From Halomonas beimenensis (GTDB taxonomy: Bacteria > Pseudomonadota > Gammaproteobacteria > Pseudomonadales > Halomonadaceae), in contig NZ_CP021435.1 of the NCBI RefSeq assembly GCF_002549795.1, forward strand, positions 2,046,001 to 2,110,000: 64,000 nt of DNA, read 5' to 3'. The notes beneath the pieces are model-generated. The model did not search any database, was not told the DNA's origin, and was given only the letters and a program-made list of their open reading frames with translations. Position 1 is the first letter of the stretch, and each line of letters starts with the position of its first letter. The position numbers and the translations under genes are program-made. Shown here one piece after another: positions 10,201 to 14,259 of the stretch.

Positions 10201-11568
10201 ATGACCGACCCCCGCACCCAGATGCGCGTCCTGCGCGGTCCCCTGCTGAGCTTCGACGCCGACCCCGGCGACGACGACGCCCCGGCGCCGGACAGCGTCC
10301 GCTACCTGGAGGACGGCGCCCTCTGGCTGGTCGACGGCCAACTCCGCGCCGTCGCCGACTACGCCGAGCTGGCCCCCCACCTGCCGTCGGGCATCGAGGT
10401 GGTGGACTACTCGGGCAAGCTGATGATGCCGGGCTTCATCGACAGCCACGTGCACTACGTCCAGCTCGACATCATGGCCTCCTACGGCCGCCAGCTGCTC
10501 GACTGGCTCAACGACTACACCTTCCCCGAGGAGTGCCGCTTCGCCGAGCGCGCCCATGCCGAGGCCGTGGCCGAGGCCTTCCTCGACGAGTCGCTACGGG
10601 TGGGCACCACCACCGCCCAGGTGTTCTGCACCTCACACCCCGGCTCGGTGGACGCCTTCTTCGCCGCCGCCAGGCGCCGGGGCCTGCGCATGCTGGCCGG
10701 CAAGGTGCTGATGGACCGCCACGCCCCGGAGGCCCTGGTGGACGACACCCTGGGCGGGCTGCGCGACAGCGAGCGGCTGATCGGCGACTGGCACGGCAAG
10801 GGCCGGCTGGGCTACAGCCTGACGCCGCGCTTCGCGCCGACCTCGACCCGCGAGCAGCTCGAGGCCACCGGGGCCGTGCTGCGCAACGCCCCGGACCTGC
10901 ACCTGCAGACGCACCTCTCGGAGAACGAGGGCGAGATCGCCTGGGTGGCCGAGCTCTTTCCGGAATGCGAGGACTACCTGGGGGTCTACGAGCGTTACGG
11001 CCTGGTGGGGCCGCGCAGCACCTTCGCCCACGGCATCCACCTGGACCAGGGCATGCGCCGGCGCCTGGCCCAGGCCGGGGCCAACATCGCCTTCTGCCCC
11101 ACCTCCAACCTCTTCCTGGGCAGCGGCCTGTTCGATCGCCAGGCCTGCCGCGAGGCGGGACTCGCCACCAGCCTGGCCAGCGACGTGGGCGGCGGCACCG
11201 ACCTCTCCGGCCTGGCCACCCTCAAGGCCGCCTACCAGGTCGGCCAGCTGCTCGGCCAGCCGCTCACCGCCTGGCAGGGCTTCTACCGCCTGACCCTGGG
11301 CAACGCCCGGGCCCTGCACCTGGACGACCGGGTCGGCCGGCTGCGCGAGGGCGGCGAGGCCGACATCCTGGTCCTCGACCCCGAGGCCACGCCGCTGCTG
11401 GCCCGGCGCACCGCGCGCTGCCGCACGCTCGCCGAGCGGCTCTTCGCGCTGATGATGCTGGGCGACGACCGGGCGGTCCACGCCACCTGGGCGGACGGGC
11501 GCCTGGTTCACCGCCGCGACACGGCGGCTCACCGATCGACCGTCGAGGCGACGCCCCTCGACGACTAG
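10201..11568 (+). CDS. guaD: Guanine deaminase
   Basis: A 455-residue amidohydrolase that converts guanine to xanthine and ammonia in the cytoplasm. The metal-binding signature PGFIDSHVHYVQLD is at about residues 79-92. Further motifs typical of guanine deaminase are QTHLSEN (second metal His), FAHGIHLD, FCPTSNLFLGSG and SDVGGGTDLS with the metal-binding Asp. The length matches bacterial GuaD. The ATG at 10201 follows a good AGGAGAG box. It lies downstream of xdhC, separated by the dispersed repeat, so it may have its own promoter. Its product, xanthine, is the substrate of the xanthine dehydrogenase next door. Confidence 0.95.
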   Translation: MTDPRTQMRVLRGPLLSFDADPGDDDAPAPDSVRYLEDGALWLVDGQLRAVADYAELAPHLPSGIEVVDYSGKLMMPGFIDSHVHYVQLDIMASYGRQLLDWLNDYTFPEECRFAERAHAEAVAEAFLDESLRVGTTTAQVFCTSHPGSVDAFFAAARRRGLRMLAGKVLMDRHAPEALVDDTLGGLRDSERLIGDWHGKGRLGYSLTPRFAPTSTREQLEATGAVLRNAPDLHLQTHLSENEGEIAWVAELFPECEDYLGVYERYGLVGPRSTFAHGIHLDQGMRRRLAQAGANIAFCPTSNLFLGSGLFDRQACREAGLATSLASDVGGGTDLSGLATLKAAYQVGQLLGQPLTAWQGFYRLTLGNARALHLDDRVGRLREGGEADILVLDPEATPLLARRTARCRTLAERLFALMMLGDDRAVHATWADGRLVHRRDTAAHRSTVEATPLDD

Positions 11569-11591
11569 TGGAGTTGGGTGTGGTACCCCTT

Positions 11592-11625
11592 GGGCGGCGC
11601 CGTCGCGGACGGGCCGCCCCTTTTT
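11592..11625 (+). terminator. Rho-independent terminator of guaD
   Basis: The stem GGGCGGC (11592-11598) pairs with GCCGCCC (11613-11619) and is followed by CTTTTT. It starts 23 bases after the guaD stop codon. Confidence 0.8.
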
Positions 11626-11682
11626 ATGGTGCTTCGCGAATGAGGCTGAAACAGGTTACGCCCGGTGTCGGCCGGATAAGCC

Positions 11683-11768
11683 GTGTAGGGCGGGTAAGCG
11701 AGCCTGCGAGCGCACCCGCGATGCCTCGCGGGCCAGCACTGGTGGATGCGCTAACGCTTATCCACCCT
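11683..11768. repeat. REP-like palindromic intergenic element, target of the IS110 insertion
   Basis: There are two imperfect hairpins: GCGGGT...ACCCGC, and GGTGGAT-GCG-CTAA-CGC-TT-ATCCACC at 11741-11766. The IS110-family element begins exactly at the foot of the second hairpin. The bases following the element at 13213 onward (CTACACGGGCGC) look like the severed other side of the same element. IS110-family transposons are known to favour REP-type sites. Only the left part is seen intact, so copy number elsewhere cannot be judged. Confidence 0.5.
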
Positions 11769-11953
11769 TGTGTCTCTCCAGTGGGGAGTGATTAGCTACC
11801 ACCCCCACGGCCTGGGAGAAACCCGGATCTACCCTGACGGTTTCGAACCTGTTCCGTAGATTGGTCTCCCAGGCTTCTATCTCGCAAACCTGAACGGTAT
11901 CCAATGCCCCCTTCCGGCGAGGAGAGGCTGTACGCACAAGGGAAAGTGGTGAG

Positions 11954-12091
11954 ATGGCACATATCGGCATCGATATCGGCAAGAAGAAACTGGATTGCCT
12001 TGTGTCTCTCCAGTGGGGAGTGATTAGCTACCACCCCCACGGCCTGGGAGAAACCCGGATCTACCCTGACGGTTTCGAACCTGTTCCGTAG
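11954..12091 (+). pseudogene. Truncated IS110 transposase start (duplicated left end)
   Basis: The ATG at 11954 begins the same 15 residues as the intact transposase (MAHIGIDIGKKKLDC). It then runs out of homology at the tandem junction into leader sequence and stops at 12091 after 45 codons. It retains the first catalytic Asp but nothing else of the RuvC-like domain. It is a by-product of the left-end duplication, not a functional gene. Confidence 0.85.
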
Positions 12092-12185
12092 ATTGGTCTC
12101 CCAGGCTTCTATCTCGCAAACCTGAACGGTATCCAATGCCCCCTTCCGGCGAGGAGAGGCTGTACGCACAAGGGAAAGTGGTGAG
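11999..12185 (+). ncRNA. Candidate bridge RNA of the IS110 element
   Basis: This is the 187-base non-coding left end of the complete element, close to the 177 nt of the bridge RNA described for IS621. ATCTACCCT at 12059-12067 matches the genomic target ATCCACCCT at 11760-11768 at 8 of 9 positions; the one difference would form a G-U wobble with the bottom strand. GTAG at 12088-12091 is complementary to the core plus AC of the right target. CACAAG at 12167-12172 is complementary to the element's own left end CTTGTG, as expected of a right donor guide. A second identical copy lies at 11767-11953. Confidence 0.55.
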
Positions 12186-13175
12186 ATGGCACATATCGGC
12201 ATCGATATCGGCAAGAAGAAACTGGATTGCCTCTGGCTTCGTGATATGGAGAAGGGCAAGGTCAAAACCAAGGTCTTTACCAATCGGCACCAGGATTATC
12301 CAGCGCTGCTGGACTGGCTGACCCGGCAGACCGGTGAGTCTCCCGAAGCGTTGCATGTCTACATGGAAGCCACGGGGATCTACCATGAGCCCCTGGCTTA
12401 TTGGCTCCATGAGGCTGGCGTCAATGTCTACGTGCTCAACCCCGCACACGCGCATCATTATGCCAAGAGTGCAGGTCGCCTTCACAAGACGGACAAGGCA
12501 GACAGCCGTGTCCTAGCAGAGTTCGGCGCGTCCCGAAGCCACCGGCGGTGGACACCGGAGCCTGAAGAAACGCGTGAGCTGAAGCGCCTGGTGGCGCGCC
12601 TCGAAGCGGTTTATCAGGATATTCAGCGCGAAAAGAATCGTCTCGAGAAAGCTCAATTCAGCCGTGATACAGGGGCCGAGACCTCGATCGGCCATGTCCT
12701 GGCGGCCCTGGAGCGCGAAGCCAAGCGCTTACAGGAGGAGATCGAGACGCACCTCGACCGCCATGATCATCTAAAACGAGATCGACAGTTGCTGATGAGC
12801 ATTCCTGGCATCGGTCCCGGGCTTTCCACAAGGCTGGTCGCGGTCCTGCGAAGCCGACCATTCGAGAGTGCTCGACAGGCGGCCGCTTTCCTGGGGCTCG
12901 TGCCGACGTATTACACCTCTGGCACGTCGGTCAAGAAGACACCAACCCTCTCCAAGACGGGGAGTGCCGTGATGCGTCGGAAGTTGTACATGGGAGCCGT
13001 GGTGGCCATGACACACAACCCGGATATCCAGGCGCAATATGCCCGGCTGAAGGCACGAGGGAAGCACAGCATGTCGGCCCTCGGGGCGGCCATGCGTAAG
13101 CTGGTGCATATCGCCTATGGCGTCCTGAAGACGCAAACCGAGTATCGACCCCAACCCATCCCTGCGGGGGGTTGA
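12186..13175 (+). CDS. IS110-family DEDD transposase/recombinase
   Basis: A 329-residue recombinase. The N-terminal RuvC-like domain has the DEDD tetrad visible as D7 (IGIDIGK), E61 (YMEATG), D103 and D106 (KTDKADS). A coiled-coil stretch spans about residues 130-195. The C-terminal Tnp2 (transposase_20) domain has SIPGIGPGLSTRL and YYTSGTSVKKTPTLSKTGS, including the likely catalytic Ser245. Members of this family recombine donor and target DNA guided by an RNA from the element's own end. Base composition is less GC-rich than the neighbouring genes, as expected of an imported element. The frame is intact, so the element could be active. It separates guaD from the adenine deaminase gene. Confidence 0.93.
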   Translation: MAHIGIDIGKKKLDCLWLRDMEKGKVKTKVFTNRHQDYPALLDWLTRQTGESPEALHVYMEATGIYHEPLAYWLHEAGVNVYVLNPAHAHHYAKSAGRLHKTDKADSRVLAEFGASRSHRRWTPEPEETRELKRLVARLEAVYQDIQREKNRLEKAQFSRDTGAETSIGHVLAALEREAKRLQEEIETHLDRHDHLKRDRQLLMSIPGIGPGLSTRLVAVLRSRPFESARQAAAFLGLVPTYYTSGTSVKKTPTLSKTGSAVMRRKLYMGAVVAMTHNPDIQAQYARLKARGKHSMSALGAAMRKLVHIAYGVLKTQTEYRPQPIPAGG

Positions 13176-13263
13176 GGTCGGTCGGGAGAGACGGTATCTA
13201 CCTGGCACGCGGCTACACGGGCGCTCCCCGGTGAAGCGCGATGAACCGGTTATCCCGCCGAGG

Positions 13264-14259
13264 TCAGCGACAGGCCGCCAGACGGTCGCGCAGCTCGGCG
13301 CGACGCCCCTCGTCCATGAAGGCGGCCTCGATCGCGTTGCCGGCCAGGGCCAGGAAGACCTCCCGGCTCCAGCCGAAGGCCCGCCGGCAAGCTATGTAGT
13401 TGTCCAGCAGGCCGCCGCCGAAGTAGGCGGGGTCGTCGGAGTTCAGGGTGATGTTCAGGCCGGCATCGAGCATGGCCGGCAGGGGATGATCCTCGAGACG
13501 CTCGACGACCCTGAGACGCAGGTTGGAGAGCGGGCAGACGGTCAGCACCATGGCCTCCTCCCGCAGCCGCTCGACCAGGGTCGGGTCCTCCAGGCAGCGC
13601 ACCCCATGGTCGATGCGGCAGACGTCCAGCACGTCAAGGGCCTCGAGGATGTAGTCCGGCGGCCCCTCCTCGCCGGCGTGGGCGACACGGGCCAGCCCCA
13701 GGGACCTGGCGCGCTGGAAGGCCTCGGCGAACTTGGCCGGCGGATGGCCGAGCTCGGCGCTGTCGAGCCCGACGGCGTCGAGGGTCTCCCAGTAGGGGGC
13801 GGCACGTTCCAGCAGGTCGAGCGCCTCCTCGGCGGGCCGGTCGCGCAGGAAGGCCAGGATCAGCGCCGAGGACAGGTCCAGCTCGCGTTCGGCCCGGCGC
13901 CGCGCCCGGCCCAGCCCCTCCATCACCGTGGCGAGCTCGATGCCCCGAGCCAGGTGGGCCTGGGGATCGACGTGCATCTCCACGTGGACCACCCCTTCGG
14001 CCGCGGCGCGGCGGAAGTAGTCCATGGCCAGGTCCTCGAAGTCCTGGGCGGTGCGCAGCACGCTCATGCCCTGGTAGTAGAGGTCGAGGAAGGACTGCAG
14101 GTCGGAAAAGTCGTAGGCGGCCCGGATCGCCCCCACGGAGTCGTAGGACAGGTGCACCCCGTTGCGATCGGCGAGCGTCAGCATCAGCTCGGGTTCCAGG
14201 GTGCCCTCGATGTGCAGATGGAGTTCGGCCTTGGGCAGGGCCTTGAGGAAATCCCGCAT
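13264..14259 (-). CDS. add: Adenine/adenosine deaminase (metal-dependent, ADE-like subgroup)
   Basis: A 331-residue TIM-barrel hydrolase. The zinc ligands HLH are at residues 14-16, followed by VAHAGEEGPP, IDHGVRCLED and NSDDPAYFGG. The segments VGLDSAELGHPPAKF and ITLNSDDPAYFGG resemble the adenine deaminases of the adenosine-deaminase superfamily (Pseudomonas type, which make hypoxanthine from adenine) more than classical adenosine deaminase. The substrate call is inferred from that similarity and from the purine context. The start at 14259 has a GAGGTG box. The frame is open far upstream, but that part is the antisense of cydC. It lies 26 bases downstream of cydC on the same strand and might be co-transcribed with the cyd genes. 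Confidence 0.9.
   Translation of the reverse strand: MRDFLKALPKAELHLHIEGTLEPELMLTLADRNGVHLSYDSVGAIRAAYDFSDLQSFLDLYYQGMSVLRTAQDFEDLAMDYFRRAAAEGVVHVEMHVDPQAHLARGIELATVMEGLGRARRRAERELDLSSALILAFLRDRPAEEALDLLERAAPYWETLDAVGLDSAELGHPPAKFAEAFQRARSLGLARVAHAGEEGPPDYILEALDVLDVCRIDHGVRCLEDPTLVERLREEAMVLTVCPLSNLRLRVVERLEDHPLPAMLDAGLNITLNSDDPAYFGGGLLDNYIACRRAFGWSREVFLALAGNAIEAAFMDEGRRAELRDRLAACR

What the first reader, a model, noticed from the sequence alone, without database searches (positions are those of the whole stretch)
11760..12185. IS110 element whose leader carries a recognisable target guide for its own insertion site
ATCTACCCT in the leader (12059-12067; also 11827-11835) equals the chromosomal sequence left of and including the CT core (ATCCACCCT, 11760-11768) except for one C-to-T change that would pair as G-U. 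GTAG (12088-12091) fits the core plus AC on the right side, and CACAAG (12167-12172) is complementary to the element's own left end. This is the arrangement described for IS621-type bridge RNAs, here in an apparently new element with an intact DEDD recombinase (D7, E61, D103, D106, Ser245). It would be a candidate programmable recombinase with its natural target known.
Basis: partly seen in the sequence, partly recalled or inferred. Interest (0 to 1): 0.72.

Follow-up and report, generated by a model that had tools for sequence, protein, structure and literature searches.

The report
RNA-guided jumping gene in palindromic repeats

Summary
Element = window 12001-13199; three identical genome copies. 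Two lie in REP-like palindromes (ATCCACCCT|AC), one in yjbQ (ACCTACCCT|AC); the unchanged guide ATCTACCCT fits each with one, different, wobble. That duplication starts at the cleavage position, but its other end is not guide-like. No expression or activity was testable. New member of a known kind.

The parts
11741..11768 (+). left part of the target: REP-like palindrome GGTGGATGCGCTAACGCTTATCCACCCT ending in left target ATCCACCCT (11760-11768, CT core 11767-11768)
   Evidence: sequence; 7-bp stem GGTGGAT/ATCCACC; same site uninterrupted in sister species G015
11769..12000 (+). partial upstream copy of the element: whole left end (11769-11953, guide at 11827-11835) plus the ORF start (44 nt and the ambiguous CCT); exact 232-nt duplication
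   Evidence: not present at the two other copies
12001..13199 (+). intact IS110-group element, one CT core counted (13198-13199)
   Evidence: 1204-nt block 11998-13201 identical in three places of the genome
12008..12185 (+). predicted bridge RNA, about 178 nt; 5' end inferred from IS621 guide spacing (implied first base 12004-12012) and the candidate circle promoter
12013..12040 (+). 5' stem-loop of the predicted bridge RNA
   Evidence: folding
12041..12107 (+). target-binding loop closed by 11-bp helix GGCCTGGGAGA/TCTCCCAGGCT
12059..12067 (+). left target guide ATCTACCCT
   Evidence: the corresponding guide tracks the flank in 47 of 48 loci
12088..12091 (+). right target guide GTAG, complementary to CTAC
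12126..12133 (+). left donor guide ACGGTATC, equal to the element's right end ACGGTATC|T
   Evidence: length and layout as IS621 A123-C130
12164..12172 (+). right donor guide AC(GC)ACAAG, pairing with left end CTTGTGT in the split IS621 pattern (two bases left out)
12186..13175 (+). DEDD/serine recombinase, 329 aa
   Evidence: Pfam PF01548 and PF02371; NF033542 IS110 family RNA-guided transposase; IS621 2.7e-54
13172..13177 (+). candidate -35 box TTGAGG; with the last five bases of the right end plus the first base of the left end (TATCT|T, 13195-13199 + 12001) it would form a 17-nt-spaced promoter only in the circular form (4 of 6 in each box)
13191..13199 (+). left donor end ACGGTATCT with the right-hand CT core
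13198..13201 (+). right target CTAC

Best explanation
A complete IS110-group insertion sequence whose left end encodes a bridge RNA. Inferred cycle: the recombinase excises the element as a circle. Joining right and left ends makes a candidate promoter (TTGAGG-17-TATCTT) that starts the RNA near 12008. [quoted passage not shown] Its second loop holds ACGGTATC and AC..ACAAG, which pair with the joined element ends. The DEDD/serine recombinase then exchanges strands after the CT core without duplicating the target. Its usual landing place here is a REP-like palindrome, at what I infer is the same point in the repeat where IS621 lands in E. coli REPs; one copy landed in yjbQ because that gene happens to carry nearly the guide's sequence. 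Shown here by sequence: boundaries, identical copies, empty site, guide-target and guide-donor agreement across relatives, predicted fold, conserved catalytic residues. Inferred from IS621: RNA production, binding, circle formation, activity. The 232-bp partial copy is best read as a tandem duplication that began at the recombinase cleavage point beside the left CT core and was joined through the 3-nt match CCT (this sub-point: about 0.5).
For: Three identical copies at targets that share the predicted site. Natural empty site in a sister species. Joined flanks of copy C restore a full yjbQ frame (TIGR00149). Guide vs left flank: 47 of 48 loci match at 6 or 7 of 7 non-core positions; 32 distinct pairs, 18 distinct guides, mean 6.31 vs permuted mean 3.01, best of 20,000 permutations 4.72. 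Right guide vs right flank in 24 loci: GTAG/CTAC 19, CTAG/CTAG 2, TTAG/CTAG 2 (U-G), TTAG/CTGA 1. Left donor guide vs right end: ACGGTATC 12 of 12, ATGGTATC 12 of 12. Right donor guide: 25 of 27 leaders pair at 7 of 7 (one of them, L097, with three bases left out instead of two), with coupled changes G13-C / A13-U and one A11-U. Covariance model built without the window: both leader copies 133.8 bits, E 5.8e-34, next hit E 0.36; it also finds the leaders of three more distant plasmid IS110s, 8e-26 to 8e-14. Layout and spacing as IS621. Two inner target-loop pairs with 12 of 27 sequences changed on both sides. IS621's own target pairing has a non-canonical pair at guide position 4 too (G53), the position of the wobble at the REP target here.
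Against: No transcript or activity data. RNAalifold on the plain MAFFT alignment gives a weak consensus (-6.85 kcal/mol). The window leader folds only moderately better than shuffles (z -2.33, 5 of 200 shuffles as good), and its unconstrained fold pairs the target guides into a stem. No Rfam family matched. One of 48 loci (L065) matches at 0 of 7; two of 27 leaders miss one right-donor pair (L066, L102). The candidate circle promoter scores 8 of 12, below the 9 of 12 that the promoter scan demands. In one search two of seven sources (the host's more distant IS110 relatives L004, L005) gave no match.
Confidence: 0.95

Rival explanations
1. The recombinase itself recognises the REP palindrome, and the leader resemblance to the flank is incidental.
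For: 24 of 47 distinct left flanks carry a perfect stem of 6 bp or more, against 3.1% of shuffles. A single 8-of-9 match arises in 3.9% of shuffled leaders.
Against: Copy C sits in a non-palindromic gene site that shares the guide sequence. Guide and flank change together across 18 guides. Within one genome the copy with guide GTCCACCCT has flank GTCCACCCT, while its three sisters with guide GTCCGCCCT have flanks GTCCGCCCT, GTACGCCCT and GTCCGTCCT.
Confidence: 0.02
2. The leader is only a regulatory 5' untranslated region or antisense target of the transposase mRNA, not a guide.
For: It lies directly upstream of the start codon; small RNAs have been reported to regulate the ISPpu9 transposase (PMC8450116, start of abstract seen).
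Against: A regulatory leader does not explain pairing with two different DNA partners at four segments that co-change with them.
Confidence: 0.02
3. On the partial copy: a second element inserted into the ORF of the first at GGATTGCCT|CT, and homologous recombination then removed the doubled remainder.
For: The left breakpoint falls exactly on the element boundary and the junction carries a CT; one crossover would give exactly the observed structure.
Against: The ORF site is a poor match to the guide (4 of 11; 40 of 64 CT sites in the element, itself included, score as high or higher) and to the donor (3 of 11; 62 of 64).
Confidence: 0.25
4. On the partial copy: an assembly artefact.
For: Exact 232-nt tandem repeat; no reads could be examined. 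The only other upstream partial copy seen (G068) lies among scaffold gaps.
Against: Single-contig genome of 4,053,030 bases, 99.99% complete; the junction is not at a random place but on the element boundary.
Confidence: 0.15

Closest known systems
IS621 of E. coli (IS110 group; PMC11208160, PMC11208158)
   Same: Recombinase family (2.7e-54), bridge RNA in the left end, guide order and spacing (implied RNA start 12004-12012), 9-nt left target guide, 4-nt right target guide, 8-nt left donor guide, split right donor guide, CT core, promoter across the circle junction. Target in a similar REP: the paper lists GCTTATCAGGCCTACG among E. coli REPs, here GCTTATCCACCCTACG; that the insertion point is the same is my inference from the CTAC.
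   Different: Guide and target letters differ (ATCTACCCT); protein diverged; a partial extra left end lies upstream in the window.
ISCro4 (solved structure 9t56)
   Same: IS110-family transposase, E 2.2e-51
   Different: Only the protein was compared.
ISEc21 / ISMch6 seekRNA elements (PMC11187229)
   Same: Upstream non-coding RNA with bottom-strand match before top-strand match, circle promoter, natural change of guide with target (section read)
   Different: Different targets; sequences not compared here.
Relatives in Halomonas, Billgrantia, Vreelandella, Thioalkalivibrio, Modicisalibacter, Salinicola, Pseudomonas and others (L057-L106)
   Same: Same leader architecture where examined; protein identity up to 67% for full-length matches
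   Different: Other guides, agreeing with their own flanks (47 of 48 loci, own copies included)

Membership tests
IS110 family, IS110 group | DEDD RuvC-like domain plus Transposase_20 domain with conserved serine | tested here: met
IS110 family, IS110 group | left end longer than right end (opposite in IS1111) | tested here: met
   185 nt vs 24 nt
IS110 family, IS110 group | no long terminal inverted repeats | tested here: met
   no end-to-end pair among the 16 inverted repeats of 10 nt or more listed for 11500-13700
IS110 family, IS110 group | scarless insertion at a CT core | tested here: met
   empty site for copy A, restored yjbQ frame for copy C
IS621-type bridge RNA | 5' stem-loop, target-binding loop, donor-binding loop | tested here: met
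   predicted only. The donor-loop closing stem forms in some but not all guide-constrained folds, not in the window's; it forms in the window's unconstrained fold
IS621-type bridge RNA | guides pair with target and with joined element ends | tested here: met
   sequence agreement:
IS621-type bridge RNA | promoter across the circle junction | tested here: inconclusive
   TTGAGG-17-TATCTT here, 4 of 6 in each box, under the 9-of-12 threshold of the scan tool; TTG at a spacing of 16-18 nt before TATCT in 26 of 26 right ends examined (24 also with a left end), but these are related sequences
IS621-type bridge RNA | RNA expressed and bound by the recombinase; guided recombination | not testable with these tools
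   needs RNA sequencing and a recombination assay

The most novel reading that the evidence does not exclude
The partial upstream copy is not debris but a recombinase-made extra bridge-RNA gene. Strand exchange at the left CT core duplicated the guide gene in place, leaving a second identical guide-coding left end outside the mobile unit that can be read from host transcription and drift to a new target without disabling the element: a route for guide duplication and retargeting. A degraded relative in another species of the genus (G068) also has an upstream leader copy that stops at the same ORF position, nt 44, though a scaffold gap follows it.
Probability: 0.08. Interest if true: 0.55.

Novelty: new member of a known kind. 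Interest (0 to 1): 0.3.

Why it matters
It adds a well-supported bridge-RNA element with two natural targets, an empty site and a family of relatives whose guides follow their landing sites. These relatives show how such elements are readdressed in nature and could serve as alternative programmable recombinases. The principle itself was published in 2024, so the gain is in examples and in natural mismatch data (apparent wobble tolerance at guide positions 2 and 4), not in a new mechanism.

Tried and rejected
Rfam scan of the window: no family reached threshold. DNA similarity in plasmids and phages: no match. Viral contigs gave only distant relatives, 29-36% identity; two of those 33 loci were used, with weak matches (E 0.0018 and 0.0047). 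RNAalifold on a sequence alignment was too misaligned to give a clean structure, so guide-constrained folds per sequence were used. In that script the right-donor position was misplaced for L051, L089 and L097 because the pattern took a later AAG; redid that segment. The shuffled-arm control for the target-loop helix reached 8 bp in 10% of trials and 13 bp at most, so single helices prove little. A guided self-insertion as the origin of the partial copy was considered and disfavoured. A chromosomal promoter for the leader copies was sought in 11640-12300: none at the tool's threshold, which the circle promoter would not pass either. A search for similar upstream partial copies within 1 kb of 44 other leaders found none.

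Rows dropped before the 48-locus count: 57 rows were examined. Seven (L072-L077, L090) lack the left end on their contig, and two (L062, L063) have only 3 nt of flank. L052 (no left end in the locus) and L103 (29% identity, partial) were not entered. A model search of 90 genomes in that check gave 27 matches in 14 genomes; its further contig-end leaders (G001, G048) and decayed remnants (G036, G039, G049, G062) are not in the count either. The left flank of the window copy was entered as the outer flank 11760-11768, not its immediate neighbour GGATTGCCT. For L053, L054, L055 and L056 the guide was read by eye, because the pattern did not accept the letters that follow it. The 27 leaders are a hand-picked set meant to be distinct; the 18 are a subset without the window. 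The loci are related, so counts are not independent events; the permutation moved whole guides for that reason.

Full report
What is there. The ORF at 12186-13175 encodes a 329-aa IS110 recombinase (PF01548 and PF02371; NF033542 'IS110 family RNA-guided transposase'). By sequence it is related to IS621 (E 2.7e-54) and ISCro4 (2.2e-51), the only two solved relatives found at E 0.001. The paper on the IS621 structure names D11, E60, D105 and S241 in the active site (passages); the alignment places D7, E61, D106 and S245 against them once a 2-residue offset of the solved chain is allowed for (my inference).

Boundaries and copies. A 1204-nt block, window 11998-13201, occurs three times in the 4.05-Mb host genome at 100% identity. 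Reading the flanks gives the element 12001-13199 with a CT core at both sides. Copy A (window) and copy B (C1:3930404-3931607) lie in GGTGGATGCGCTAACGCTTATCCACCCT|AC, a REP-like palindrome. Copy C (C1:1425528-1426731, minus) lies in GGCGACCTACCCT|AC inside a gene. Joining the flanks of copy C restores an uninterrupted frame that matches YjbQ, TIGR00149, E 2.4e-37. For copy A, a sister species (G015) holds the same intergenic region without the element, reading ATCCACCCTACC across the junction. Insertion is thus exact, with only the CT shared.

Guide and target. The leader's ATCTACCCT differs from each natural target by one base, position 4 for the REP and position 2 for yjbQ. In both cases the RNA would have U where the DNA bottom strand has G, so both are wobble pairs. 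No site with the perfect guide sequence plus AC is in the assembled genome; three unoccupied sites of the form AYCYACCCTAC remain (the same pattern read backwards occurs five times, so such sites are not enriched).

Test across relatives. One scan of a collection of 84,980 bacterial and archaeal species genomes gave 50 loci, mostly Halomonas-group, Thioalkalivibrio and Pseudomonas. The guide was located by position and by its CT end, not by its match to the flank, except four rows read by eye. At the seven non-core positions 26 loci match 7 of 7, 21 match 6 of 7 and one (L065) 0 of 7. Among 32 distinct pairs the mean is 6.31; after permuting the 18 distinct guides it is 3.01, never above 4.72 in 20,000 trials. 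The right guide, left donor guide and right donor guide also co-change with their partners. The right donor guide follows the unusual split pairing described for IS621: two pairs, two bases left out, then five more pairs. In the window it reads A-C-(GC)-A-C-A-A-G against CTTGTGT, 7 of 7. One degraded relative read later fits its flank less well, 5 of 7.

RNA structure. Folding 12008-12188 gives a 5' stem-loop and a target loop closed by a long helix, energy -68.5 against a shuffled mean of -58.4 (z -2.33, 5 of 200 shuffles as low). With guides held single-stranded, by eye most of 27 leaders show a 5' stem-loop, a target loop and a donor hairpin, though L097 folds its target loop differently and the donor-loop closing stem is variable. 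The target-loop outer helix is 6-11 bp in 27 of 27, with 16 distinct arm pairs, mean 9.85 against 5.97 for shuffled arms; shuffled arms reach 8 bp in 10% of trials. A covariance model from 18 relatives, window excluded, finds the two leader copies at E 5.8e-34, and a chance-level third hit at E 0.36. It also finds the leaders of IS110s on plasmids of Saccharobesus, E. coli and Pantoea at 8e-26 to 8e-14, two viral-contig relatives weakly, and nothing beside two more distant IS110 relatives of the host (5 of 7 sources).

Promoter. Joining the ends as in the circle makes TTGAGG-17-TATCTT, the second box straddling the junction. A TTG at a spacing of 16-18 is kept in 26 of 26 right ends examined; TATCTT itself is complete in the 24 that also had a left end. 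It scores 8 of 12, so it would fail the scan used for the chromosome, which found no site between 11640 and 12300. The arrangement agrees with IS621, where excision builds the promoter for the RNA (section read), but is unproved here.

The partial copy. Positions 11766-11997 and 11998-12229 are identical. The duplicated piece starts at the element's left boundary and ends after nt 44 of the ORF, GATTG. Both ends share CCT. The ORF site does not resemble the target or donor guides (4 of 11 and 3 of 11), so guided insertion is unlikely. The IS621 paper reports rare deletions and inversions between insertion sites (passage), which makes recombinase-started rearrangement plausible. I favour a tandem duplication started by cleavage at the core; insertion plus homologous loss, or an assembly error, remain open. 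No such copy lies within 1 kb upstream of 44 other leaders. One degraded relative (G068) does have an upstream leader copy that also ends at ORF nt 44, but there it is followed by ten N and other gaps surround it.

What is known. IS110 bridge RNAs, their covariation with target and donor, and REP targeting are published (PMC11208160: abstract, sections 5, 6, 7, 12 and 20 and passages read; PMC11208158: passages; PMC11187229: abstract, outline and one section; PMC1525189: passages). The REP listed there for E. coli, GCTTATCAGGCCTACG, is the counterpart of the site here, GCTTATCCACCCTACG. The word Halomonas does not occur in the main text of PMC11208160. Five library searches (listings seen) showed no title about a Halomonas element of this kind or a duplicated left end; 8 papers hold both 'Halomonas' and 'IS110', none with either word in title or abstract. 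Only part of the literature is held and ISfinder is not. The nearest full-length protein found is 67% identical, so the element is probably unnamed.

Verdict. The modest score reflects that the mechanism is published.

Noticed in passing
window 11766-12229: Exact 232-nt tandem duplication of the left end plus ORF start, with its left breakpoint on the element boundary and CCT shared at the joints.
   Followed up: partly
L044 (G068), reverse strand 1112-1547: A degraded relative with a broken ORF also carries a second leader copy just upstream, ending at ORF nt 44 as in the window, then ten N.
   Followed up: partly
window 12059-12069: The DNA that encodes the left target guide is itself the best-scoring of 64 CT sites in the element (9 of 11), but is followed by GA instead of AC; this may spare the element from inserting into its own guide gene.
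   Followed up: no
L065 around 2796-2809: The only insertion of 48 whose flank does not match its guide; the flank reads ACAGAGCC-CGCT, the guide ACAGAGCCT, as if a few bases were added, and the right side is also off (CTGA).
   Followed up: no
L053-L056 (one genome, G280): Four copies in one genome with two guide versions (GTCCGCCCT, GTCCACCCT); the flank of the variant copy carries the same change. Two of the copies are adjacent.
   Followed up: partly
L066-L068, L070, L071, L091, L094, L095, L102: A Billgrantia/Halomonas/Salinicola subgroup has right guides CTAG or TTAG and left flanks roughly of the form TTTTCGGACAAAGCCT, mostly without a long stem; the right flank AG is seen only in L066-L068, the other right ends being absent or unread.
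   Followed up: no
L164 (G049), L165 (G039), L167 (G036), L168 (G062): Decayed leader remnants without an intact recombinase; in L167 the leader is fused to the ORF end and right end, in L164 it is preceded by a right-end-like stretch.
   Followed up: partly
L141 2470-2690: Beside an IS110 copy on a Saccharobesus plasmid, the flank is a tandem array of target-like repeats, and a right-end-like stretch also lies upstream.
   Followed up: no
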